Virus record (IMG/VR): IMGVR_UViG_3300042303_000041
Location: 1 to 64,000 of that record
Reading direction: 5' to 3' (one strand)
DNA length: 64,000 nucleotides
Source: a virus
The notes beneath the pieces are model-generated. The model had not been told where the DNA came from. It saw nothing but the letters and a program-made list of their open reading frames with translations, and searched no databases. This document shows positions 15,746 to 59,099 of this stretch, piece after piece. Numbering within the stretch: the stretch's first letter is position 1; each line of letters starts with the position of its first letter. Made by a program: the position numbers and the translations under genes.

Positions 15746-16240
15746 CTATTGATATTTTATTACTTTGAACAATGTCATTGGATTGTTGGCAAAAATGTCA
15801 GTCCAAACTTTTCTCCAATTTCTTATAAACCTCATATCACTCTTGTCTTCTTTACTTATAATAATGTCTGTGGTTGATTCTGTAGTATCAGCAAAAATAG
15901 AATCACATCCCCATATATCTATCTGAGCACATCCGATAGTAAGAAGATAGTTTGCTGCATAGTGAGCAGCATTAAACCAATCTCTTGGTTTAAAAACAGC
16001 TAAGATGGTGTACTTGTCTTCAATCTTATATTCTTTCATCTTAGAATAAACTTTAGTGCTAACAATCATGGGGCATGTTATAGCCTCTGGATTGTTTTTC
16101 AATATAAAAACAATCTCTTCATCGCACACTACAGTAGCATCAACACTAAATTCACCTGGAAAGTTACAGCCAATGACAATATCACCAGAACGATTATATG
16201 CAGATTTGCTTGGACCATTACCTAAAACAATACCTAACAT
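15746..16240 (-). CDS. Rossmann-like protein with GNGPS motif (MptE/DUF115 or sugar-transferase-like)
   Basis: 164 aa. The N-terminal 'MLGIVLGNGPSKSAYNRSGD' resembles the GNGPS loop of DUF115/MptE-type and sialyltransferase-like proteins. 'IDIWGCDSIFADTTESTTD' follows later. Possible nucleotide- or sugar-phosphate-binding enzyme; the substrate is unknown. AAGGAAAC precedes the ATG, which starts right after the tmRNA coding piece. Confidence 0.45.
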   Translation of the reverse strand: MLGIVLGNGPSKSAYNRSGDIVIGCNFPGEFSVDATVVCDEEIVFILKNNPEAITCPMIVSTKVYSKMKEYKIEDKYTILAVFKPRDWFNAAHYAANYLLTIGCAQIDIWGCDSIFADTTESTTDIIISKEDKSDMRFIRNWRKVWTDIFANNPMTLFKVIKYQ

Positions 16241-16257
16241 CTAGTTTCCTTATTAGT

Positions 16258-16443
16258 GGTAGGTTATTCTGTTACGAGGAAACCTACCGAAACCCTAAGC
16301 AGCGTTTAGGCTGCTAATGCGTAGACTGTGTCGTTTGCATTTACTTCTTTTGCTTCTTCGACCGAGTTTCCCCAATCCTACGGGTTTCACATTCCCGTGT
16401 TGCCGTCTCTACTATCTACCTCTGTCGAAACCAAGGCACCCCC
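16258..16443 (-). ncRNA. ssrA: tmRNA, coding piece of a circularly permuted ssrA (tag ANDTVYALAA)
   Basis: Begins GGGGGTG (16443-16437), continues 'CCTTGGTTTCGACAG' (the D-loop analogue of tmRNA), a pseudoknot-like ACGGG/CCCGT, and the resume frame GCA AAC GAC ACA GTC TAC GCA TTA GCA GCC TAA (16338-16306), encoding ANDTVYALAA. The stop lies in a GCAGC/GCTGC hairpin. A GGTAGGTT/AACCTACC hairpin closes the 3' side. The 3' boundary (about 16258) is approximate. GGGGGTG pairs with CACCTCC of the acceptor piece at 16618-16624 and gives the G3-U70 pair that alanyl-tRNA synthetase requires. Confidence 0.9.
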
Positions 16444-16444
16444 A

Positions 16445-16603
16445 TCATAAAGATTTTATTTTTGTAACGATGTCATAGACTTTTGAATAAGTGTCAGTTA
16501 TTTTATCTAACTGCTGTTCTGATAGTGATTCATTTTCTTCCAAATGAACCAAATCTTTTGCTAGATGTTCCTGTAACTCTTTCAATTTATCCTGCTCATC
16601 CAT
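16445..16603 (-). CDS. 52-aa protein encoded inside the tmRNA intervening segment
   Basis: ATG 16603 to TGA 16445. The protein (begins MDEQDKLKELQEHLAKDL, ends VYDIVTKIKSL) is charged and strongly helical or coiled-coil-like. AAGGA lies 5 nt upstream, just after the CCA of the acceptor piece. The stop codon ends 1 nt before the first G of the coding piece, so the ORF fills the spacer of the permuted tmRNA almost exactly. No family recognised. Intervening segments of bacterial permuted tmRNAs are normally short and non-coding. Confidence 0.65.
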   Translation of the reverse strand: MDEQDKLKELQEHLAKDLVHLEENESLSEQQLDKITDTYSKVYDIVTKIKSL

Positions 16604-16613
16604 ACAATCCTTA

Positions 16614-16681
16614 TGGTGGAGGTGGCGAGAGTCGAACTCGCGTCCAGAAGTCCTTCGCTTTGAAGGGATTACAACAATTCC
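16614..16681 (-). ncRNA. ssrA: tmRNA, acceptor piece of the permuted ssrA
   Basis: Lies upstream of the coding piece on the transcribed strand. It holds hairpin CCTTC-AAAGC-GAAGG, then CTTCTG (can pair with CAGAGG of the coding piece as helix P2), a T-arm GCGAG-TTCGACT-CTCGC, acceptor strand CACCTCC, discriminator A and encoded CCA (16616-16614). The 5' limit is taken as the stop of the upstream gene. 3'-half-before-5'-half is the defining order of permuted two-piece tmRNA. Confidence 0.9.
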
Positions 16682-16891
16682 TTATAAGCCACCGTTGGGT
16701 TGAGTTGCTTTCACAAGCATTACTCTACCGCTACCGTTGACCTGTAATTTAAACATGTCTCCATCTTTCCATCCTTTAGGTAATGAACCCCAAATTCGAT
16801 CAGGTTTCTTTTCCTGCGATGCAAGATGCAATTCTTCATCAAACAAAATATATCCATCTTCAAGATCAAAATTATAATCGATGTATAACAT
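16682..16891 (-). CDS. Small conserved hypothetical protein
   Basis: 69 aa from ATG 16891 (MLYIDYNFDLEDGYILFDEE); the longer frame starts at a TTG. Beta-rich with a C-terminal 'GDMFKLQVNGSGRVML'. Similar short proteins occur in T4-like cyanophages. It ends exactly where the tmRNA acceptor piece begins. Confidence 0.5.
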   Translation of the reverse strand: MLYIDYNFDLEDGYILFDEELHLASQEKKPDRIWGSLPKGWKDGDMFKLQVNGSGRVMLVKATQPNGGL

Positions 16892-16892
16892 A

Positions 16893-16921
16893 AGTATACC
16901 CTTTAATGATTTACAAGTCAA
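16893..16921 (-). promoter_or_regulatory. Promoter upstream of the tmRNA region
   Basis: TTGACT (16916-16921), 17-bp spacer, TATACT (16893-16898). The ATG at 16891 begins 1 nt after the -10 box, so a transcript from here would start inside that ORF and mainly serve the tmRNA locus. Confidence 0.6.
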
Positions 16922-17571
16922 ATATTGTGGGCATTCTTGTATTCTAGACGTAACTTTCTAAATCCTCCGATCCAGTTGTCACGTTTCTCAATAAACAGTC
17001 GTGGATCATCGTTTTCCACACCCATAATAATCACTAGTCTACCAATTGGAATGCCTGTGCGTTCTTCAAATGCAACTGCGTATGCCGCTGTTTGCATAAA
17101 GTAATTATATATATCTTCCCTGTCTTTGGGCTTATTTGCAGTTTTAAAATCTATAACTGACAGCTTGCCTTGGAATTCAGCAATGCAGTCTACAGTTCCC
17201 GCCACTTCCAAGAAGTCAGAATATAGTGGAGTTTCTAAACAGTGGATGTTATCAATATCATTTAACCAGAGTTTCATTGAATTGAAAATCTCTGCATCAA
17301 AAATATCTGGTTCAGGATTCTTACCTAGCAGATAATGTTCACAGAGGGTGTGAACTCTTGTTCCTCTGGAAGATGCTCTTGCGGATACCCTATTCGCTTC
17401 TTCATTACCAACTCTGCGCCGCCATTCTGCAATTCCTTTTGCTGAATGTAGGGACGTAACGGTTGTGACCGATGGATAGGCTCTACCCGTCGGTGTTTTA
17501 TATACTCGTGTGCCATTGGCAGCAGTGGTGCGTTCGAGCTTGGGTAGATCATGGTGTATAAATGTCTTCAT
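16918..17571 (-). CDS. PD-(D/E)XK (RecB/Cas4-like) exonuclease
   Basis: 217 aa. Nuclease core: 'GTVD' with Asp128, 'VIDFKT' with Asp141 and Lys143, and the RecB-type 'QTAAYA' motif at 160-165. N-terminal 'YPSVTTVTS' and 'GTRVHTLCEHYL' also fit phage exonucleases of this family. It probably processes DNA ends in recombination or host DNA degradation. The promoter at 17578 leaves 6 nt before the ATG (leaderless). Confidence 0.78.
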   Translation of the reverse strand: MKTFIHHDLPKLERTTAANGTRVYKTPTGRAYPSVTTVTSLHSAKGIAEWRRRVGNEEANRVSARASSRGTRVHTLCEHYLLGKNPEPDIFDAEIFNSMKLWLNDIDNIHCLETPLYSDFLEVAGTVDCIAEFQGKLSVIDFKTANKPKDREDIYNYFMQTAAYAVAFEERTGIPIGRLVIIMGVENDDPRLFIEKRDNWIGGFRKLRLEYKNAHNI

Positions 17572-45832: not shown

Positions 45833-45908
45833 TGGAGCGGGTAAGGAGGCTCGAACTCCTGACATCTTCCTTGGCAAGGAAGTGCTCTACCAACTGAGCT
45901 ACACCCGC
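45833..45908 (-). tRNA. tRNA-Gly(GCC)
   Basis: Acceptor GCGGGTG/TACCCGC-type stem, anticodon loop TTGCCAA, T-loop TTCGAGC, encoded CCA. Confidence 0.93.
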
Positions 45909-45914
45909 ATAACT

Positions 45915-45989
45915 TGGCATCCCCCCAAGGACTCGAACCCTGACCTAACGGATTTGGAATCCGTGATGCTGCCATTACACCAGAGAGAT
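45915..45989 (-). tRNA. tRNA-Trp(CCA)
   Basis: Acceptor ATCTCTC/GGGGGAT (two G-U pairs), loop TTCCAAA with anticodon CCA, discriminator G, encoded CCA. Confidence 0.9.
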
Positions 45990-45992
45990 ATT

Positions 45993-46169
45993 TTACTTTT
46001 TACTTAACACTTCTTGAGTCTCTTGATTATTTCTAGTAACCTTTTCTTCAGACTCATCTTTTTTGAGATCGCGACTAAAGATATAATCCCAACGCTTCTC
46101 ATATTCATCCTGATTAATACTAAATGGTCTAGGAGATGAACCTTTACCACCGTCACTCATCTTACTCAT
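45993..46169 (-). CDS. Small conserved phage protein
   Basis: 58 aa (MSKMSDGGKGSSPRPFSINQ...). 'GGKGSSPRPFSINQDEYEKR' followed by 'WDYIFSRD' recurs in phages. The start overlaps the stop of the next gene upstream. Function unknown; embedded among tRNAs. Confidence 0.6.
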   Translation of the reverse strand: MSKMSDGGKGSSPRPFSINQDEYEKRWDYIFSRDLKKDESEEKVTRNNQETQEVLSKK

Positions 46170-46296
46170 ACAATCTACCTTTAATATCTTTTTGTTGAGC
46201 TTTACGTTCTGTTTTCCAAAAGAAACGTTTGAAGTCTTTCAAATGTTTCCACCATTGCGGAGACTTAGTCAAATTACCTTGCTTAACATTAGCCAT
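46162..46296 (-). CDS. Small basic conserved phage protein
   Basis: 44 aa (MANVKQGNLTKSPQWWKHLK...), Lys/Arg/Trp-rich; AGGAGAG before the ATG. Similar short proteins occur next to the previous one in other phages by memory. Confidence 0.55.
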   Translation of the reverse strand: MANVKQGNLTKSPQWWKHLKDFKRFFWKTERKAQQKDIKGRLYE

Positions 46297-46314
46297 AATA
46301 CTCTCCTAAAACTT

Positions 46315-46389
46315 TGGTGCTGATGGCGAGATTTGAACTCACGACCTCTTCCTTACCAAGGAAGTACACTACCACTGTGTTACATCAGC
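46315..46389 (-). tRNA. tRNA-Thr(GGT)
   Basis: Acceptor GCTGATG/CATCAGC, loop TTGGTAA, discriminator A, encoded CCA. Confidence 0.92.
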
Positions 46390-46400
46390 TTTCTTAAAAT

Positions 46401-46476
46401 TGGCTCCCCAGCGTGGGATCGAACCACGGACACCTTGATTAACAGTCAAGTGCAACTACCGCTGTGCTACTAGGGA
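46401..46476 (-). tRNA. tRNA-Asn(GTT)
   Basis: Acceptor TCCCTAG/CTGGGGA, loop CTGTTAA, discriminator G, encoded CCA. Confidence 0.92.
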
Positions 46477-46485
46477 ATAAAACTA

Positions 46486-46569
46486 TGGTGCCCCAAGAGA
46501 GACTCGAACTCTCACGCCTTTCGGCACTGGCTTCTAAGACCAGCGTGTCTACCATTCCACCATCGGGGC
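46486..46569 (-). tRNA. tRNA-Leu(TAG)
   Basis: Class II with long variable arm; loop CTTAGAA; acceptor GCCCCGA/TTGGGGC; encoded CCA. Confidence 0.92.
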
Positions 46570-46590
46570 AAATACATACTACTTATAACT

Positions 46591-46664
46591 TGGTCTCGAT
46601 GGCAAGAATCGAACTTGCGCTACATGCTCCCAAAGCACGGGTGATACCATTTCACTACATCGAG
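46591..46664 (-). tRNA. tRNA-Pro(TGG)
   Basis: Acceptor CTCGATG/CATCGAG (C1-G72 as usual for Pro), loop TTTGGGA, discriminator A, encoded CCA. Confidence 0.92.
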
Positions 46665-46675
46665 ATAAAAACTTT

Positions 46676-46750
46676 TGGTGGTGATGGTTGGATTTGAACC
46701 AACGACCATCTCCGTATGAAGGAGGTGCACTACCACTGTGCTACATCACC
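46676..46750 (-). tRNA. tRNA-Met(CAT), elongator type or Ile2
   Basis: Acceptor GGTGATG/CATCACC, loop TTCATAC, discriminator A, encoded CCA. G1-C72 rules out the initiator. Confidence 0.88.
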
Positions 46751-46753
46751 ATT

Positions 46754-46830
46754 TATAAACACATTTAAACTTTCCTTCAGCGTTTAGTCGCTATCTCCCT
46801 TACTAATCGGGCGTAGAGTATGTGCTTATA
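46754..46830 (-). ncRNA. Family-2 closed-stem RNA, copy a
   Basis: TATAAGCACAT pairs with ATGTGTTTATA (11 bp, one G-U valid only on the minus strand) around 55 nt containing AGCG/CGCT. Shares the 3' TGTGTTT strand with copies at 49561, 50296 and 50730. Confidence 0.5.
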
Positions 46831-46832
46831 GA

Positions 46833-46906
46833 TGGTGCCCCTTGACAGAATCGAACTGCCGTAACCTGATTACAAAACAGGTGTAATACCATTATACTAA
46901 AAGGGC
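46833..46906 (-). tRNA. tRNA-Thr(TGT)
   Basis: Acceptor GCCCTTT/AAGGGGC, loop TTTGTAA, encoded CCA; first pair of the anticodon stem next to the loop is T-T. Confidence 0.87.
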
Positions 46907-46913
46907 ATAAAAT

Positions 46914-46978
46914 AACAGGTTAACACTAGTTTAAAGTCCTAGCAGACAGCCTTTTTATATTGCTGAACTTAACCTAAA
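46914..46978 (-). ncRNA. Family-1 closed-stem RNA, copy D
   Basis: TT-AGGTTAA, GTTCAGCAA, body, TTAACCT-GTTATT. Closing helix 7 bp; inner CAGC/GCTG and CTAG/CTAG possible. Confidence 0.6.
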
Positions 46979-46980
46979 AC

Positions 46981-47051
46981 TGGTTGCGGGTGTAGGATTC
47001 GAACCTACTAGGTAGAGCTTATGAGACTTACCGATACCCTGAATACCCGCA
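46981..47051 (-). tRNA. Degenerate tRNA with CAT anticodon (Met/Ile2-like)
   Basis: Acceptor TGCGGGT/ACCCGCA, perfect T-arm TAGTAGG-type with TTCGAAT, encoded CCA and loop CTCATAA, but the D-arm and anticodon stem pair poorly. May be a decaying or unusual tRNA. Confidence 0.55.
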
Positions 47052-47057
47052 ATAACT

Positions 47058-47133
47058 TGGTACCTCGTGACAGTTTCGAACTGCCGACCTTCGCCGTGTA
47101 AAAGCACTGCTCTACCACTGAGCTAACGAGGCA
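47058..47133 (-). tRNA. tRNA-Val(TAC)
   Basis: Acceptor GCCTCGT/ACGAGGT (G1-U72), loop TTTACAC, encoded CCA; outermost anticodon-stem pair mismatched. Confidence 0.85.
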
Positions 47134-47142
47134 TAATAAACA

Positions 47143-47203
47143 ACAGGATCCTTATTTTTCAATTACAAGTTGAATTTTTTTGATTTGCTGGACGGATCCT
47201 AAA
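47143..47203 (-). ncRNA. Family-1 closed-stem RNA, copy C
   Basis: TT-AGGATCC, GTCCAGCAA, inner hairpin TTCAA/TTGAA, GGATCCT-GTTGTT. The closing helix differs from other copies at positions 4-7 but stays fully paired (compensatory changes). Confidence 0.6.
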
Positions 47204-47205
47204 AC

Positions 47206-47280
47206 TGGCGACTCGTGGGAGACTCGAACTCCCGTGATCGGATAGACAATCCGACGTAATAACCCCTATACGAACGAGCC
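47206..47280 (-). tRNA. tRNA-Asp(GTC)
   Basis: Acceptor GGCTCGT/ACGAGTC, loop TTGTCTA, discriminator G, encoded CCA. Confidence 0.92.
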
Positions 47281-47482
47281 AAAATAAGTATAAGCTACTG
47301 GTTTCCATGCCAGCCCTTAATTGAGCAGTTACTCTGTCCATCTCCATTTATTCAAAGTCTGTGTGCAGTTAAGATTCTGCCTATCAGAGCCTGAGTGGGT
47401 CGTATACACTCGCTAACGGTCTTCTGCCACCGAACCTCTATCGCTAGTCAAACGCTACTTTAACGAAAGTAGTAACGAGATT
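47281..47482 (-). other. Gene-free spacer with hairpins
   Basis: About 200 nt between tRNA-Asp and tRNA-Tyr. Minus-strand hairpins CTACTTT-CGTT-AAAGTAG (near 47455) and GAGTG/CACTC (near 47403) are visible. No tRNA, family-1 or family-2 element; a short ORF starting 47347 runs into tRNA-Asp and is not credible. Confidence 0.4.
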
Positions 47483-47568
47483 TGGTGGAGAATCTTGGAA
47501 TCGAACCAAGTGTGCCGTAAGGCGACGGATTTACAGTCCGCTGCAGTCACCAATGCTGCTCATTCTCC
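47483..47568 (-). tRNA. tRNA-Tyr(GTA)
   Basis: Class II; acceptor GGAGAAT/ATTCTCC, loop CTGTAAA, encoded CCA. Confidence 0.92.
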
Positions 47569-47575
47569 GAAATTC

Positions 47576-47650
47576 TGGTACTGCGTATGGGTAACGATCC
47601 CATCTAGTCACCTTGAAAGGGTGATGACCTCACCTGAAGTCGAACGCAGT
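47576..47650 (-). tRNA. tRNA-Glu(TTC)
   Basis: Acceptor ACTGCGT/ACGCAGT, loop CTTTCAA, T-loop ATCGTTA, encoded CCA. Confidence 0.9.
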
Positions 47651-47654
47651 ATAG

Positions 47655-47684
47655 TGGTAGGTTTTTGTATAAGGAAAAACCTAC
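47655..47684 (-). other. Long hairpin in a tRNA leader
   Basis: GGTAGGTTTTT/AAAAACCTACC (11 bp) just before tRNA-Glu. The stem base repeats the GGTAGGTT/AACCTACC hairpin that ends the tmRNA coding piece. Confidence 0.5.
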
Positions 47685-47751
47685 CAAACCTTTTCTAATG
47701 CCTCAGGCTTCCGACTTTACGTAAAGACTCAGAGAGGACTTCAGAAACTTT

Positions 47752-47780
47752 ATTATACATCAATAATGATTAAAAGTCAA
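47752..47780 (-). promoter_or_regulatory. Promoter inside the tRNA cluster
   Basis: TTGACT (47775-47780), 17 bp, TATAAT (47752-47757); a GACTTTAC/GTAAAGTC palindrome follows in the leader. Confidence 0.82.
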
Positions 47781-47789
47781 CAACTATCT

Positions 47790-47865
47790 TGGAGTACGCA
47801 ACAGGATTCGAACCTGCATGATACGGATTTGCAATCCGCTCCCTAGCCATTCGGGTCATGCGTAC
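47790..47865 (-). tRNA. tRNA-Cys(GCA)
   Basis: Acceptor GTACGCA/TGCGTAC, loop TTGCAAA, discriminator T, encoded CCA. Confidence 0.92.
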
Positions 47866-47872
47866 ATATCTC

Positions 47873-47950
47873 TGGTGGGCTCCCCGAGAGTCGAACTCGG
47901 CACCAATGGATTATGAGTCCACTGCTCTAACCAACATGAGCTAGAAGCCC
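47873..47950 (-). tRNA. tRNA-Met(CAT)
   Basis: Acceptor GGGCTTC/GGAGCCC, loop CTCATAA, encoded CCA. Elongator Met or Ile2; not initiator. Confidence 0.9.
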
Positions 47951-47956
47951 AACAAC

Positions 47957-48031
47957 TGGTGCGGCATGAGGGAATCGAACCCCCATTCTGGCTTTAGAAG
48001 AACCATGTCCTATCCGTTGAACGAATGCCGC
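47957..48031 (-). tRNA. tRNA-Arg(TCT)
   Basis: Acceptor GCGGCAT/ATGCCGC, loop CTTCTAA, encoded CCA. Confidence 0.92.
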
Positions 48032-48038
48032 AAAACTT

Positions 48039-48122
48039 TGGTACGAGAGACGGGACTCGAACCCGTAAGCCTTGCGGCGGCAGATTTTAAGTCTGCTGTG
48101 TATACCATTCCACCACCCTCGC
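48039..48122 (-). tRNA. tRNA-Leu(TAA)
   Basis: Class II, loop CTTAAAA, acceptor GCGAGGG/CTCTCGT, encoded CCA. First tRNA after the promoter at 48135, about 5 nt from the expected start. Confidence 0.92.
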
Positions 48123-48134
48123 ATTCATAAAACT

Positions 48135-48163
48135 ATTATACCTTATGCAAGAATTAAAGTCAA
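48135..48163 (-). promoter_or_regulatory. Promoter inside the tRNA cluster
   Basis: TTGACT (48158-48163), 17 bp, TATAAT (48135-48140). Confidence 0.85.
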
Positions 48164-48173
48164 CACCTATCTT

Positions 48174-48251
48174 TGGTACCCAAGATCGGATTCGAACCGA
48201 TACGATTCTCCTTTTGAGAGAGACGCCTCATACCAATTGGGCTACTTGGGC
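48174..48251 (-). tRNA. tRNA with CAA anticodon but short (class I) variable loop
   Basis: Acceptor GCCCAAG/CTTGGGT, D-arm GCC/GGC, anticodon stem TCTCT/GGAGA, loop CTCAAAA, variable ATCGT, T-arm ATCGG/CCGAT, encoded CCA. CAA reads UUG (Leu), yet Leu tRNAs have a long variable arm, so identity is uncertain. Confidence 0.75.
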
Positions 48252-48253
48252 AT

Positions 48254-48345
48254 TGGTACCAGTGTAGGGATTCGAACCCTATCAAGAACGCTAATCTGGC
48301 GCTAAAAGGTTTATAAAACCTCTCTGACTACCCAGTCTCACTGGC
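48254..48345 (-). tRNA. Class II tRNA with TAT anticodon
   Basis: Acceptor GCCAGTG/CACTGGT, D-arm GAC/GTC, anticodon stem GAGGT/ACCTT with loop TTTATAA, variable arm AGCGC/GCGTT (5 bp), T-arm TAGGG/CCCTA, encoded CCA. TAT would read AUA (Ile), but Ile tRNAs are class I; charging by Leu, Ser or Tyr enzymes is conceivable. Confidence 0.7.
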
Positions 48346-48350
48346 ATATT

Positions 48351-48437
48351 TGGCGGAGGATACAGGAATCGAACCTGTCAGCCCATTTCTGAACGAGAGT
48401 TTAGCAAACTCCTGTCGCACCTTGCAACACATCCTCC
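48351..48437 (-). tRNA. tRNA-Ser(GCT)
   Basis: Class II; acceptor GGAGGAT/ATCCTCC, loop TTGCTAA, discriminator G, encoded CCA. Confidence 0.92.
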
Positions 48438-48442
48438 ATATC

Positions 48443-49006
48443 TCACATCGTTGGTCCATTACCATTACGGAAGCCAATGTCACCACCTTCTTCCTTGATG
48501 CGCTTTAACACATCTTCGAATAAGATAGGACGAAAGTCTGTTTGTTCAACACAAACACAATGATAACGAGGATCGATCTTACCATCTATCATCACACGAT
48601 TTGCATGAGTATGACCATGAATGTTAGTACCGAACCTACCTAACGACTCAGGATGTAACGGGATATGACTTAAGATCATACCGTTCATCACATGATAAGC
48701 ACGTAACTCTCTAAAGTGTACACGATAGTCTTCATCTTTAAAGATATCGTGGTTACCACGAATTAAAACCTTATCACCGTTTAACCGATGCATGATAGAC
48801 ATTGCCTTGCGGTTGATAACTACATCGCCTAAGTGATAAACCTTATCAGTTGGCTTTACAGTTTCGTTCCACATCTTTACCATGGCTTCATCCATTTCTT
48901 CGGCAGAATCCCAAGGTCGTAACTTTGTCACACCATCATTGCGAGTAAACTTGCATACGCCCATGTGACCAAAGTGCGTATCGCTAACTAAAAATACACT
49001 TGGCAT
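48443..49006 (-). CDS. Calcineurin-like metallophosphoesterase
   Basis: 187 aa from ATG 49006 (MPSVFLVSDTHFGH). D-x-H 'SDTHFGH', 'YHLGDVV', 'LIRGNHDIF', 'ILSHIPLHP', 'NIHGHTHANR': full metal set. Resembles small phage phosphoesterases; substrate unknown. The only protein gene inside the dense tRNA block apart from the two small ones near 46000. Confidence 0.8.
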   Translation of the reverse strand: MPSVFLVSDTHFGHMGVCKFTRNDGVTKLRPWDSAEEMDEAMVKMWNETVKPTDKVYHLGDVVINRKAMSIMHRLNGDKVLIRGNHDIFKDEDYRVHFRELRAYHVMNGMILSHIPLHPESLGRFGTNIHGHTHANRVMIDGKIDPRYHCVCVEQTDFRPILFEDVLKRIKEEGGDIGFRNGNGPTM

Positions 49007-49029
49007 ATACATCTCCTAATAAAAAATAC

Positions 49030-49139
49030 AACAGGTTAGTTTGATTGCCACCGTGGCACATCACCCAAGTCTCTTTCGAGTTTTGGCGGGTAATGCTGGA
49101 ATCGAACCAGCTAGTTTTGTTTTGCAGAACCTAACCTAA
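49030..49139 (-). ncRNA. Family-1 closed-stem RNA, copy B, with permuted tRNA-like fold
   Basis: Closing helix AGGTTAG (49137-49131)/CTAACCT (49039-49033) with GTTCTGCAA. Inside, in 5'-3' order: T-arm GCTGG-TTCGATT-CCAGC (49111-49095), acceptor-like ATTACCC (49094-49088) then GCCA, a CTC-GAAA-GAG loop, acceptor partner GGGTGAT (49066-49060) and a D-like hairpin GCCA/TGGC. The 3' tRNA half thus precedes the 5' half and the 'acceptor' is capped, as in the tRNA-like module of YrlA Y RNAs. Confidence 0.6.
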
Positions 49140-49142
49140 ATT

Positions 49143-49234
49143 TGGCGGAAAGCAGAGGAGTCGAACCCCATCCCATTTCTGAGAACCCAGTTTTCAAGGC
49201 TGGTCGCAGGACCAACCCCGCTGCATTACTTTCC
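49143..49234 (-). tRNA. tRNA-Ser(TGA)
   Basis: Class II; acceptor GGAAAGT/GCTTTCC, loop CTTGAAA (closing C-A), discriminator G, encoded CCA. Confidence 0.9.
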
Positions 49235-49242
49235 ATAATTCT

Positions 49243-49341
49243 TTTACCGACAGGACTTTCACCTGTAATATACTCCTGCATCTCGGAGCCTTGCTTCTGC
49301 CTAAGCTGATCAAAGGAATTGCTCCAGCTATTGACGATAAA
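49243..49341 (-). ncRNA. tRNA-like structured RNA
   Basis: TTTATCG pairs with CGGTAAA (7 bp) and is directly preceded by an ACAGG-TGAAAGT-CCTGT arm in T-arm position, but there is no TTCGA loop, CCA or anticodon arm. Gene remnant or functional tRNA mimic. Confidence 0.4.
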
Positions 49342-49345
49342 TCTT

Positions 49346-49420
49346 TGGTGCGCCCTGAGAGAATCGAACTCCCACTCCAACGTTCGTAGCGTTGTGTAAT
49401 ATCCATTTTACTAAAGGCAC
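49346..49420 (-). tRNA. tRNA-Arg(ACG)
   Basis: Acceptor GTGCCTT/AGGGCGC (two U-G pairs), loop CTACGAA, encoded CCA. A34 would need editing by host TadA. Confidence 0.9.
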
Positions 49421-49425
49421 ATAAT

Positions 49426-49555
49426 TGGTGGGGATGACGGGATTCGAACCACGTACAAGAACTTTTACAGAGTTATAGTGTTAGTGTTGCGGAAACAATT
49501 CTACATACAGAATTGACTTTTTACTTTGCTATGCTAACCATTACATCACATCCCC
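49426..49555 (-). tRNA. 130-nt tRNA-like gene with large insertion
   Basis: Acceptor GGGGATG/CATCCCC, D-arm ATG/CAT, T-loop TTCGAAT, discriminator A and encoded CCA, but the T-stem has a bulged T and about 60 extra nt replace a normal anticodon arm (hairpin CAATTCT/AGAATTG). No clear anticodon. Either an intron-bearing or inserted tRNA, or a derived structured RNA. Confidence 0.5.
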
Positions 49556-49560
49556 AAAAT

Positions 49561-49679
49561 CTTAATGAAACACACTCTCGACGTCAGGGGTCTTTTCATC
49601 GTGCTGACTAAGCTACTTCGTTGAGTGAACCGTGGAGTCAATACGCTTCAACAACCAATGATGAATATGCTTCATTAAG
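49561..49679 (-). ncRNA. Family-2 closed-stem RNA, copy b
   Basis: CTTAATGAAGCATA pairs with TGTGTTTCATTAAG (14 bp with two G-U pairs valid on the minus strand) around about 90 nt. No ORF. Confidence 0.5.
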
Positions 49680-49680
49680 A

Positions 49681-49716
49681 TGACTGACAATTTATCACAT
49701 TGTACGCCATCAGTCA
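49681..49716 (-). other. Hairpin GACTGA/TCAGTC with inner ACAAT/ATTGT stem
   Basis: Two stacked stems with an asymmetric TGGCGT bulge and a 7-nt loop; lies between tRNA-Ala and family-2 copy b. Confidence 0.4.
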
Positions 49717-49726
49717 AGGCGAATTT

Positions 49727-49801
49727 TGGTGGACCGTGGGAGGATCGAACTCCCGACTTCTGCGTGCAAGGCAGATATGTTCCCAATTATACCAACAGCC
49801 C
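49727..49801 (-). tRNA. tRNA-Ala(TGC)
   Basis: Acceptor GGGCTGT/ACGGTCC with the G3-U70 identity pair, loop CTTGCAC, encoded CCA. Confidence 0.92.
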
Positions 49802-49806
49802 ATAAA

Positions 49807-49875
49807 CAACAGGATAGTTTTGTCGCTAAGACAACCAAAAAGTTTAGCATTATGTATTGCAGAACCTATCCTAAA
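49807..49875 (-). ncRNA. Family-1 closed-stem RNA, copy A
   Basis: TT-AGGATAG, GTTCTGCAA, inner TTGTC/GACAA hairpin, CTATCCT-GTTGTT. Cleanest small copy (about 65 nt). Confidence 0.6.
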
Positions 49876-49878
49876 ACT

Positions 49879-49952
49879 TGGTTCCCTGTAGAGGTTACGA
49901 TCCTCTGTCGCTCGATTATCAGTCGAGTGCTCTACCATTGAGCTAACGGGGA
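49879..49952 (-). tRNA. tRNA-Ile(GAT)
   Basis: Acceptor TCCCCGT/ACAGGGA (one C-A), loop CTGATAA, T-loop ATCGTAA, encoded CCA. Confidence 0.88.
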
Positions 49953-49962
49953 ATATCTTTCT

Positions 49963-50038
49963 TGGTACCGAGAGACGGGATCGAACCGCCCACGCACAGA
50001 TTTTCAGTCTGTCGCTCTACCAACTGAGCTATCTCGGC
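49963..50038 (-). tRNA. tRNA-Phe(GAA)
   Basis: Acceptor GCCGAGA/TCTCGGT, loop CTGAAAA, encoded CCA. Confidence 0.92.
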
Positions 50039-50047
50039 ATAATTGAA

Positions 50048-50215
50048 TTTGTAAGTAGTTCCGCCTCGCTCATTCGGAACCATTTCGCCCAGTATACGTT
50101 AGGGTTAGAGGTACATAGTAATAGTTGATACTTGCTAGTGACCATTTTGTCGGACTCGAACCGTTAGCTCATAGAGTTTTCGAGGCTCTACTTTCTCAAC
50201 ATCTACACTTACAAA
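50048..50215 (-). ncRNA. Closed-stem RNA with a tRNA-Ser-like module
   Basis: TTTGTAAGT/ACTTACAAA (9 bp) closes about 168 nt. The 5' part can alternatively fold as a tRNA-like unit: GTTTTGT/ACAAAAT, loop CTCGAAA (CGA, Ser-like) and a TTCGAGT T-loop with weak stem, no CCA. A GTTCCG/CGGAAC hairpin sits near the 3' end. Confidence 0.42.
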
Positions 50216-50218
50216 ACT

Positions 50219-50293
50219 TGGGGTGTCGTATGAGAATTGAACTCATGATGACGGAATCACAATCCGTAGTTTTACCACTAAACTAACAACACC
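50219..50293 (-). tRNA. tRNA-His(GTG)
   Basis: G-1 paired with C73, acceptor GTGTTGT/ACGACAC, loop TTGTGAT, encoded CCA. Confidence 0.92.
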
Positions 50294-50295
50294 AT

Positions 50296-50392
50296 ATAGA
50301 AACACACTACTGAAATTGAGTATGAAGGAATCGAACCTTCTTCCACGTTCCACGTACTCGATGCCCGTTTCAGTCAGGCTAATGTGTTTTTA
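50296..50392 (-). ncRNA. Family-2 closed-stem RNA, copy c, with T-arm module
   Basis: AAACACATTA/TAGTGTGTTT closing helix, then CTGAAA/TTTCAG, GAGTA/TACTC and an internal T-arm GAAGG-TTCGATT-CCTTC: a rod ending in a tRNA T-loop, with no anticodon or CCA. Confidence 0.5.
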
Positions 50393-50394
50393 TA

Positions 50395-50472
50395 TGGTAG
50401 GGGCACAGGGATTCGAACCCTGCCCTGGCAGATTAAAAGTCTGCTGTGCTAAACCGCTGACACTATACCCCC
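50395..50472 (-). tRNA. tRNA-Lys(TTT)
   Basis: Acceptor GGGGGTA/TGCCCCT, loop CTTTTAA, discriminator A, encoded CCA. Confidence 0.92.
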
Positions 50473-50475
50473 ATA

Positions 50476-50552
50476 TGGTCCACTCGCTGAGATTCGAACT
50501 CAGACCTCGATGATTAAGAGTCATGTACGCTACCATTAAACGCCACGAGTGG
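50476..50552 (-). tRNA. tRNA-Lys(CTT)
   Basis: Acceptor CCACTCG/CGAGTGG, loop CTCTTAA, encoded CCA. Confidence 0.9.
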
Positions 50553-50660
50553 TTGTACGTATTGAATTGATTTTACGTGCCAACTAAGACCATACGGGGG
50601 ATCTTAGAGACACTAACGTTTACCTGAACGTTTCATGCTACTCTCCTTTTGTTAAACTCA
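50553..50660 (-). other. Spacer with micro-ORF and hairpin
   Basis: AAAAGGAGAG precedes a seven-codon ORF MKRSGKR near 50631-50608; a CTAAGA/TCTTAG hairpin follows. The ribosome site is excellent but the peptide is too short to judge. Confidence 0.3.
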
Positions 50661-50731
50661 CGAAATAGTGAACAGGATTTGCACCTGTGCCCGCAGCCAA
50701 CGACTGCACTCTCCTACTAAGCTATCACCAT
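50661..50731 (-). tRNA. Degenerate tRNA-like sequence
   Basis: ATGGTGA/TCACTAT stem, arm ACAGG-TGCAAAT-CCTGT in T position, GCAG/CTGC anticodon-like stem with loop TCGTTGG (position 33 not T), no CCA. Possible pseudo-tRNA (Asn-like GTT). Confidence 0.35.
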
Positions 50732-50830
50732 ATTGAAACACACTGAGCACGGCTTTGCCACCCACATGTTTTCAGCGCCACATGATCAGGTATCCGTGTA
50801 CCGAGTTGCGTTATGAATGTGTTTCAATAT
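50730..50830 (-). ncRNA. Family-2 closed-stem RNA, copy d
   Basis: ATATTGAAACACA/TGTGTTTCAATAT (13 perfect pairs) closes about 75 nt with inner GGTA/TACC, CATGT/ACATG and GGC/GCC stems. Confidence 0.55.
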
Positions 50831-50903
50831 GGCACCCGAGGTAGGAATCGAACCTACAATAACAGAGTCAAAGTCTGGTGTGTTACCACTACACTACTCG
50901 GGA
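50830..50903 (-). tRNA. tRNA-Gln(TTG)
   Basis: Acceptor TCCCGAG/CTCGGGT (U1-U72), loop CTTTGAC, discriminator G, encoded CCA. Confidence 0.9.
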
Positions 50904-57035: not shown

Positions 57036-59099
57036 TTACTTGCTTGTAGCTCTATAAACTCCATCCCAATCTTTAGGTAAGTCCTTTGCCTTCATTTCTT
57101 CGCAACGTTCAATCCATAGTTCGTAGTAGTGGTCCATTTCTCCAAGGAATTTACCATTCAATTGTTTGCAAAGTTTAATAGCGGCATCAAACTTTTGCAA
57201 TCTATACAGTTGCAACATCTTTTCATGCTGTTGTGTTTCTATAACATATGATGAATTTTCCATCCACCAATCATGTCTACCCAGTACTGTATAAACGTGG
57301 ATGCCTTCTTTCTTCCCTTTAACTGCAATGCAATCAAGTTCTAGAGTTGCATATTCATCTTCAACTTGTTTATTGGTATTTGCACCAATAACAATCTTAA
57401 CACCGTAAGGTTTACTCTGACCTTCTAGTCGTGCTGCGAGATTGACACCATCACCAAGGCAAGTATAATCAAAACGTTGACTAGACCCCATATTTCCAAC
57501 CACAACAGTATCAGTGTTAATACCAAGACCCATACCAAATGCAGGAACACCTTCAGCGGTAACTTCTTTATTAAACGCATCTAAACTACCCATCATTTCT
57601 AGTCCAGTCTTTACTGCCATTTTTGCATGGTTCGGTTCGTCCAACGGTGCATTCCAAAACGCCATTTGTGCATCTCCAATGTATTTGTCAAGTGTGCCAT
57701 TATTTTCTATAATCTTGGCAGTCATTGCTGTCATATATCTATTCATTATTTTTGTGAGTCCTTGCACATCTTTTCCATAGTGCTCAGAGATTGACGTAAA
57801 CCCTCTAACATCGGTGAACATGATTGAAAGCTCTCGTGATTCACCACCAAGCTGTAGTAATTCAGGATTTCGCTGCAACTTTTCGACCAATGCGGGAGAG
57901 AGGTAGGTTGCAAACTGTTTTTTGATTTGGAGTTTTGCTGCGAGTTCAACAAGGAATTTGACAACGTAGCCGTGGAAAGAGACAAGGGTAATGGTAAGTA
58001 TCGGGAACACAGCATCAACCAGATAGCTTGATCCAATGAAGAGGTAATAGCTGCCGAAAAAGGATCCTGCGGCAAAGATGATTGAGAAGATGTAGCCATG
58101 CTTGAACCTTGTTAGTAGTAATGTGATGATACAAATTAGTATCGTATATAAAAGTTCAACGCCATCTGCCCAATCTGGACGACTGATGTTACTTCCGCTT
58201 GCAACTGTGTCTAGTACAGAGGCTTGCAAGTAGTGCGGGTAGACTTCACCTCTTGCTGTAGATACTGGGTTGTTGAGCCCTCGCCCTGTAATTCCGACGA
58301 TGACGATTTTACCTCCGAGATCCTTTGGCAAATTTGCCAAGGAGTATTCGGTTGGTCTGGATGACCAATCCACCCAGACTCTACTGTCACCGTCTGTTGT
58401 GATTTTTCCAAAGGCTGGAACTCTAACTGCTTCGATGGAGCCTTCGTTAATTTTAACTTGGAAGGAAGGATCTCCTGCGGCGACACGCAAGGTTTCAAGA
58501 GAGATACTTGGGTATAACTTTCCGTCGATGTTGATAAGCATGGGAACTCTGCGGATGACGCCATCGAGTTCAGGGAAAGTATTGACAATACCAATGCCAG
58601 CAGCGTTTTCATTAACAGACCTCACATTCGAAAGAATTGATTGAAATTTGATTCCAGGATCACCTTCGCCTATAATCGATACACCAGGTCGAAATGGTAT
58701 CTGTGTTACGGAGTCAGTTATCTGATCATTTACTGCAGTATGCGGAAATACTACAGGGTGTTGTTTTAAAATAGCGCCAAGTTTAGAATCTTGACCAAAG
58801 CGATCACTGTCAGGAAGGAAAACGTTAAAAACAACCAACCCAGCACCATTCCTATAAAGAGTATCAATAATGGTGGCATATTCTCCACGTGGGAAAGGAA
58901 ATTGTCCTTTTTGTCGAATAGTTTCGTCATCTATGTTTACCACAGCGACTTGTTGGGACACCGTGCTTTCTTTTGAAGTTATCAGTTGATCGAAATAACG
59001 TAGTCTTATCGATTCAACGAATGATGGATCTGCAATGCGAATAGAAATTAGTAACACCAGAGTAAGTAATGCCATCCATGGTGATAGTAATCTTTTCAT
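57036..59099 (-). CDS. CHASE2-sensor adenylyl cyclase (class III)
   Basis: 687 aa. N-terminal TM, periplasmic CHASE2 domain (about 25-310: 'VAVVNIDDETI...FPRGEYATII', 'VVFNVFLPDSDRFG'), three more TMs (about 315-385), then the cyclase: 'ELSIMFTDVRGFTSISEHYG' (metal Asp), 'TLDKYIGDAQMAFWNAP' and 'DYTCLGDGVNLAARLEG' (Asn/Arg of the transition state, Asp for adenine). A helical tail follows. It would make cAMP in response to an envelope signal. In bacteria this architecture is often beside FecR genes, as here (ATGA overlap). Confidence 0.88.
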   Translation of the reverse strand: MKRLLSPWMALLTLVLLISIRIADPSFVESIRLRYFDQLITSKESTVSQQVAVVNIDDETIRQKGQFPFPRGEYATIIDTLYRNGAGLVVFNVFLPDSDRFGQDSKLGAILKQHPVVFPHTAVNDQITDSVTQIPFRPGVSIIGEGDPGIKFQSILSNVRSVNENAAGIGIVNTFPELDGVIRRVPMLINIDGKLYPSISLETLRVAAGDPSFQVKINEGSIEAVRVPAFGKITTDGDSRVWVDWSSRPTEYSLANLPKDLGGKIVIVGITGRGLNNPVSTARGEVYPHYLQASVLDTVASGSNISRPDWADGVELLYTILICIITLLLTRFKHGYIFSIIFAAGSFFGSYYLFIGSSYLVDAVFPILTITLVSFHGYVVKFLVELAAKLQIKKQFATYLSPALVEKLQRNPELLQLGGESRELSIMFTDVRGFTSISEHYGKDVQGLTKIMNRYMTAMTAKIIENNGTLDKYIGDAQMAFWNAPLDEPNHAKMAVKTGLEMMGSLDAFNKEVTAEGVPAFGMGLGINTDTVVVGNMGSSQRFDYTCLGDGVNLAARLEGQSKPYGVKIVIGANTNKQVEDEYATLELDCIAVKGKKEGIHVYTVLGRHDWWMENSSYVIETQQHEKMLQLYRLQKFDAAIKLCKQLNGKFLGEMDHYYELWIERCEEMKAKDLPKDWDGVYRATSK

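What the first reader, a model, noticed from the sequence alone, without database searches (positions are those of the whole stretch)
16258..16681. Phage-encoded circularly permuted (two-piece) tmRNA
The 3' tRNA-like half with T-arm and CCA (16681-16614) is upstream of the 5' half (16443 down) on the transcribed strand. The halves make a 7-bp acceptor stem with the G3-U70 alanine pair, and the tag frame reads ANDTVYALAA-stop. Permuted tmRNA is established for alphaproteobacteria, some cyanobacteria and some betaproteobacteria; a lytic T4-like phage carrying one is, to my knowledge, very unusual. It implies phage control of ribosome rescue and tagging during infection.
Basis: partly seen in the sequence, partly recalled or inferred. 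Interest (0 to 1): 0.93.

Follow-up and report, generated by a model that had tools for sequence, protein, structure and literature searches.

The report
Protein gene nested in phage tmRNA
This freshwater T4-like phage carries a two-piece ribosome-rescue RNA, a kind already known in water phages, but the stretch cut out between its two pieces is itself a small protein gene, and in many related phages the same slot holds quite different protein genes.

Summary
Window 16676-16306 (-) is a permuted tmRNA (RF04321 123 bits; beta_tmRNA 102 bits) with a 7-bp acceptor stem, G3-U70 and tag ANDTVYALAA. The claim that this is very unusual in phages is not right: Melnitz and dozens of aquatic phages have one (PMC9004378), and 69 of 80 syntenic relatives here do too. 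The 170-nt intervening sequence (IVS) between CCA (16614) and G1 (16443) is filled by a 52-codon gene: Shine-Dalgarno directly after CCA, stop codon ending 1 nt before G1. Its homologues are under purifying selection (dN/dS 0.07-0.42) and also occur outside the IVS. In other phages the same slot holds about 25 unrelated ORF families, including a thioredoxin and a staphylococcal-nuclease homologue, framed the same way. The IVS ends form a strongly covarying helix that extends the acceptor stem and buries the Shine-Dalgarno. Bacterial IVSs parsed are 4-47 nt. Likely mechanism, inferred: the nascent IVS is translated; completing the helix shuts translation off and commits the transcript to tmRNA processing. 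I found no published report of coding genes in tmRNA IVSs; even the IVS ORF of the cultured phage Melnitz is unannotated.

The parts
16614..16676 (-). 3' tRNA-like (acceptor) piece of the permuted tmRNA: T-arm, acceptor 3' strand CACCTCC, A-CCA
   Evidence: RF04321 123.4 bits; ARAGORN
16444..16613 (-). intervening sequence (IVS), 170 nt, removed from the mature two-piece RNA
   Evidence: between CCA and G1
16445..16603 (-). 52-aa protein gene nested in the IVS (MDEQDKLKELQEHLAKDLVHLEENESLSEQQLDKITDTYSKVYDIVTKIKSL); stop UGA ends 1 nt before G1 of the 5' piece
   Evidence: dN/dS 0.07-0.42 among homologues; Fisher p 1e-9 for L001-L006
16606..16613 (-). IVS helix 5' arm UAAGGAUU, contains the Shine-Dalgarno of the nested gene
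   Evidence: MFE fold; covariation in 40 phages
16448..16455 (-). IVS helix 3' arm AAUCUUUA, encodes the last codons of the nested gene
16258..16443 (-). 5' (coding) piece of the tmRNA: acceptor 5' strand GGGGGTG, tag frame, 3' terminal helix
   Evidence: RF01850 102.1 bits to 16253
16306..16338 (-). tag reading frame ANDTVYALAA-stop
16918..17571 (-). upstream exonuclease (PD-(D/E)XK/Cas4-like) gene, syntenic anchor of the locus
   Evidence: tblastn to phage exonucleases; synteny in L127-L205; Melnitz_83 PDDEXK upstream of its tmRNA
16682..16921 (-). small gene between the exonuclease and the tmRNA; ends just before the acceptor piece
15746..16240 (-). 164-aa gene directly downstream of the tmRNA, no family match

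Best explanation
The locus is a permuted, betaproteobacterial-type tmRNA gene of a T4-like phage whose IVS has become a coding slot. One transcript is both the precursor of the two tmRNA pieces and the mRNA of a small protein. Shown by sequence: (1) the tmRNA is intact and its acceptor stem is kept by compensatory change; (2) the IVS ORF is a real protein gene under purifying selection; (3) the IVS ends form a conserved helix continuing the acceptor stem, with the Shine-Dalgarno in its 5' arm and the last codons in its 3' arm, so the folded precursor hides the ribosome-binding site; (4) different phages carry unrelated genes in the same frame of start and stop. Inferred: while the 3' end of the IVS is not yet transcribed the Shine-Dalgarno is free and ribosomes can load; once the 3' arm and the 5' acceptor strand are made, the helix closes, initiation stops, and host RNase P and 3'-end enzymes release the two tmRNA pieces. 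The tmRNA then works with host SmpB to rescue ribosomes and tag chains for host proteases. The slot probably arose by insertion of small genes into the loop of the ancestral IVS hairpin, whose UGAU end supplied the stop codon.
For: tmRNA. Acceptor stem paired in 280 of 280 cells over 40 sequences (100%), with both-side changes at 3 pairs and the U-G pair kept in all. IVS helix: covariation score of the whole structure 0.492 against 0.133 shuffled and at most 0.162 for slid controls, with both-side changes at all 10 IVS pairs; own ends pair 7.35 of 8 against 4.86 when swapped between phages. Coding: 52-aa family dN/dS 0.07-0.42, 41-aa family 0.07-0.26, L250/L264 0.07, Fisher p 0.01 to 1e-9. Known domains in the slot: thioredoxin PF00085 4e-21 (L244), SNase PF00565 2e-11 (L057). 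60 ORF-filled IVSs in 25 families; the stop ends exactly 1 nt before G1 in 49 of 60. The 52-aa gene also occurs next to a tmRNA (L006) and between decayed tmRNA halves followed by an intact tmRNA (L003, L004). SD accessibility falls from a median of 0.49 in nascent to 0.13 in complete RNA over 25 families; for the window's full precursor it is about 0.
Against: No RNA or protein data: processing, translation and the switch are unproven. The IVS helix is also present in non-coding phage IVSs and in bacterial IVS hairpins, so it was not made for regulating the ORF. The UGAU before G1 is likewise found in non-coding IVSs, so part of the exact stop position is inherited from the RNA. L057 pairs poorly (4 of 8). 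Some IVS ORFs, including that of Melnitz, run into the 5' piece instead of stopping before it. Fold energies use simple truncations, not kinetics.
Confidence: 0.75

Rival explanations
1. Ordinary phage permuted tmRNA; the IVS ORF is a chance open frame or a neutral remnant without function.
For: Most IVSs at this locus have no ORF (34 of 46 distinct); the UGAU end gives a ready stop codon in any case; for short ORFs openness alone is not very improbable (p_open 0.01-0.08).
Against: dN/dS well below 1 in several families; recognisable thioredoxin and nuclease genes in the slot; Shine-Dalgarno and ATG at a fixed distance; the 52-aa gene persists where its tmRNA halves have decayed.
Confidence: 0.07
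2. The ORF is a real gene, but the IVS helix is only a processing aid of the tmRNA precursor; ORF translation and tmRNA maturation do not regulate each other (simple co-transcription and gene packing).
For: The helix is present in ORF-free phage and bacterial IVSs; phage genomes are tightly packed; the slot content varies widely.
Against: In folding predictions the helix hides the Shine-Dalgarno in nearly all 25 families, so some coupling is hard to avoid physically.
Confidence: 0.35
3. The phage RNA is a decoy or interfering tmRNA that titrates SmpB or alters tagging rather than adding rescue capacity.
For: No SmpB in the phage record; a tmRNA-like RNA resembling the tag-less one of phage DS6A was reported to inhibit tmRNA (PMC4131195).
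Against: Tag frame, LAA end, G-U pair and acceptor pairing are all kept across the group, which points to a working tmRNA.
Confidence: 0.12
4. Pseudogene captured from a host, no longer functional.
For: A few relatives do carry decayed copies (L003, L004).
Against: Full-length model match, compensatory changes and wide conservation (69 of 80 syntenic relatives).
Confidence: 0.02

Closest known systems
Two-piece tmRNA of Methylophilales phage Melnitz (MZ577097; PMC9004378)
   Same: Permuted tmRNA in a related T4-like phage, same place after a PD-(D/E)XK nuclease gene; its IVS (141 nt) also has paired ends and an ORF behind a Shine-Dalgarno.
   Different: The PMC9004378 passages read do not mention an IVS ORF and the record annotates none. 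Melnitz tmRNA is described as alphaproteobacterial in type, the window's scores as beta type. Melnitz's ORF runs into the 5' piece; the window's stops 1 nt before it. The paper proposes a glutamine riboswitch there; Rfam found none at the window's locus.
Permuted bacterial tmRNA (RF04321, RF01849-RF01851)
   Same: Order of pieces, acceptor stem, tag frame, IVS hairpin continuing the acceptor stem.
   Different: Bacterial IVSs parsed here are 4-47 nt (median 29, n=22), too short for such genes; the same IVS-ORF search pattern gave 10 hits in genome contigs, none of them recognised as a permuted tmRNA.
tmRNA genes with a group I intron, some with homing endonuclease genes (PMC11915505)
   Same: A protein gene inside a tmRNA gene, in RNA removed from the mature form.
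   Different: No intron here: the insert is the IVS of a permuted gene, contents are mostly unknown small proteins, thioredoxin or SNase, and removal would be by tRNA-processing enzymes.
T4 td intron ORF I-TevI (own knowledge)
   Same: Coding gene inside processed phage RNA with its ribosome-binding site hidden in RNA structure.
   Different: Group I intron and homing endonuclease; there a late promoter gives an accessible RBS, and no TATAAATA was found in the tmRNA here.

Membership tests
permuted (two-piece) tmRNA | covariance-model match over the curated threshold | tested here: met
   RF04321 123.4 bits (cut-off 47), RF01850 102.1 (cut-off 84)
permuted (two-piece) tmRNA | acceptor piece upstream of the coding piece, 7-bp acceptor stem with G3-U70 | tested here: met
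   pairing and compensatory changes
permuted (two-piece) tmRNA | tag reading frame with stop codon | tested here: met
   ANDTVYALAA-stop
permuted (two-piece) tmRNA | processing into two stable pieces, alanine charging, tagging | not testable with these tools
   needs RNA and protein from infected cells
permuted (two-piece) tmRNA | SmpB partner | tested here: inconclusive
   no SmpB in the 168-kb phage record; host SmpB presumed
IVS-nested protein gene | purifying selection on the protein | tested here: met
IVS-nested protein gene | translation during infection | not testable with these tools
   needs ribosome profiling or mass spectrometry
group I intron tmRNA | group I intron in the T-loop | tested here: not met
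   T-loop uninterrupted; Rfam found only tmRNA models at this locus
homing endonuclease gene in RNA gene | endonuclease domain in the nested ORF | tested here: not met
   no Pfam match over cut-off and no clear PHROG match for the 52-aa protein

The most novel reading that the evidence does not exclude
Phages use the IVS of permuted tmRNA genes as an exchangeable expression slot: one RNA is either an mRNA for a small phage protein or the precursor of a ribosome-rescue RNA, and the helix that extends the acceptor stem decides between the two, tying synthesis of the small protein to tmRNA maturation.
Probability: 0.45. Interest if true: 0.88.

Novelty: new variant of a known kind. Interest (0 to 1): 0.75.

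Why it matters
It would be, as far as I could find, the first family of tmRNA genes that double as mRNAs, with about 25 unrelated protein families set between the same RNA borders. It offers a natural test of how ribosomes and RNA-processing enzymes compete for one transcript, and a source of unannotated small phage proteins, since the slot lies inside what annotators call one RNA gene. Melnitz, a cultured phage, has it, so it can be tested now.

Tried and rejected
Phage rarity of permuted tmRNA: rejected by PMC9004378. SmpB in the phage record: none. Known family for the 52-aa protein: none over cut-off in Pfam and no clear PHROG match; no relative in the INPHARED phages. T4 late promoter in the tmRNA: none. 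Sigma-70-like sites upstream (16921-16893, 17606-17578) are not more than expected by chance. A structure prediction of the 52-aa protein was started but not finished. The 'openness' test (Fisher p 4e-23) is not corrected for selecting filled IVSs and is not relied on. First regular expressions for the two halves failed and were corrected. The DNA search of phage isolates with the tmRNA found no close relative. Phage C48C1, closest by exonuclease, has no permuted tmRNA.

Full report
What was claimed and what is there. ARAGORN reports a permuted tmRNA at 16215-16706 with tag ANDTVYALAA, and Rfam gives RF04321 at 123.4 bits over its full length (16676-16306) and RF01850 beta_tmRNA at 102.1 bits. 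The acceptor piece ends in CCA at 16614; the coding piece starts GGGGGTG at 16443; the seven acceptor pairs include G3-U70.

Is it unusual in phages? No. PMC9004378 describes a two-piece tmRNA in Methylophilales phage Melnitz and reports 53 predicted two-piece forms among 133 unique phage tmRNA structures, 50 of them aquatic. The window's phage is related to that group: its cyclase-like protein (57036-59099) matches Melnitz and Pelagibacter phage HTVC008M best. Among 80 IMG/VR loci with a relative of the neighbouring exonuclease, 69 carry the permuted tmRNA nearby (62 by pairing of both halves, 7 more by ARAGORN).

The nested gene. The IVS, 170 nt, contains a 52-codon ORF. TAAGGA follows CCA directly, ATG begins 10 nt after CCA, and UGA ends one nucleotide before G1. 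Homologues in L003, L005, L006 and L007 differ mostly at synonymous sites (dN/dS 0.07-0.42; Fisher p 1e-9 for the window against L006). In L006 the gene stands alone just upstream of a tmRNA; in L003 and L004 it lies between decayed tmRNA halves, followed by a second, intact permuted tmRNA. The gene is therefore selected as a protein and can live apart from the tmRNA.

A slot with changing content. Over all phage loci fetched, 169 distinct IVSs were parsed; 60 are filled by an ORF, falling in 25 sequence families of 22 to 146 aa; in 49 of 60 the stop ends exactly one nucleotide before G1. Two families have known domains: thioredoxin (L244, PF00085, 4e-21) and staphylococcal nuclease (L057, PF00565, 2e-11). 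Most others have no family, and many are 22-41 aa with a likely membrane helix. Because selected for SD+ATG, 60 of 169 is not a prevalence; in the unselected syntenic set 7 of 46 distinct IVSs are exactly filled and 5 more have an ORF running into the coding piece, two of them in IVSs of about 60 nt that may be chance. The same pattern in 84,980 bacterial and archaeal species gave 10 hits, which on inspection were standard tmRNAs, tRNAs or unresolved, none recognised as permuted. Permuted tmRNAs were found in 140 of 399 Pseudomonadota genomes; in the 22 that parsed, IVSs are 4-47 nt, median 29. The longest in that set, L366, was not parsed; it appears to have an IVS of roughly 130 nt and was not examined for an ORF.

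The helix. In the window the IVS begins UAAGGAUU and ends AAUCUUUA-UGAU; these arms pair, stacking on A73-U, a C.A mismatch, C75-G and A76-U above the acceptor stem. The minimum-energy fold shows it (z -4.2). Across 40 non-redundant phage IVSs the structure has 89.5% paired cells, covariation score 0.492 against 0.133 for shuffles and at most 0.162 for slid partners; all 10 IVS pairs have changes on both sides. The acceptor stem shows compensatory changes while the U-G pair is invariant. Bacterial IVS hairpins show the same design in several cases (for example AAAACCGGC...GCCGGCTTTTGAT), so the helix is probably ancestral and genes seem to have entered its loop.

Mechanism. In folding predictions the Shine-Dalgarno region is open in the nascent transcript and hidden once the acceptor 5' strand is made: median unpaired probability 0.49 to 0.13 over 25 families, about 0 for the window's full precursor. 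This suggests that early ribosomes translate the IVS and that later closing of the helix ends initiation and presents the precursor to RNase P. This step is inferred and I give it about even odds; the simpler alternative is co-transcription without regulation.

Tractability. Melnitz, in culture, has the arrangement: IVS 141 nt with ends TAAACACTT/AAGTGTTTA and an unannotated ORF of 54 codons that runs into the coding piece. Unannotated permuted tmRNAs also occur in Alcaligenes phage QDWS595 and Pseudomonas phage UF_RH6.

Prior art. PMC11915505 (97,179 tmRNA sequences) mentions an IVS holding a tRNA gene and one holding a repetitive element, and homing endonuclease genes in group I introns; its passages on intervening sequences do not mention protein genes in the IVS. 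Literature searches found no other report. Most subscription papers are not in the library, so novelty is stated with that limit.

Noticed in passing
L374 (MZ577097.1, tmRNA 45984-46436): The cultured phage Melnitz has an unannotated 54-codon ORF in its tmRNA IVS, reading into the coding piece, with paired IVS ends.
   Followed up: partly
L369 (OK149171.2 55063-55316) and L370 (OQ383211.1 53010-53309): Unannotated permuted tmRNAs in Alcaligenes phage QDWS595 and Pseudomonas phage UF_RH6; the latter infects P. aeruginosa, whose own tmRNA is one-piece (own knowledge).
   Followed up: partly
L003:1780-2140, L007:177-550, L374: T-loop GGCAGTR in place of TTCGAYT in some phage permuted tmRNAs; the 52-aa gene occurs in IVSs of both T-loop types, hinting at exchange between tmRNA types.
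   Followed up: no
L003 1592-2140 and L004: Tandem arrangement: decayed tmRNA halves around the 52-aa gene followed by an intact permuted tmRNA.
   Followed up: partly
window 49429-49555 (-): tRNA-like gene (RF00005, 36.7 bits) with intact acceptor, D and T arms and encoded CCA, but about 64 nt in place of the usual 17-nt anticodon-arm segment; not called by ARAGORN.
   Followed up: partly
window 45833-50903 (-): Array of 27 tRNA genes covering most amino acids.
   Followed up: no
window 57036-59099 (-): Adenylate/guanylate cyclase-like protein shared with Melnitz and HTVC008M.
   Followed up: no
L366 (bacterial genome G416): Bacterial permuted tmRNA with an unusually long IVS, roughly 130 nt (span 332 nt); not parsed in detail.
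   Followed up: no
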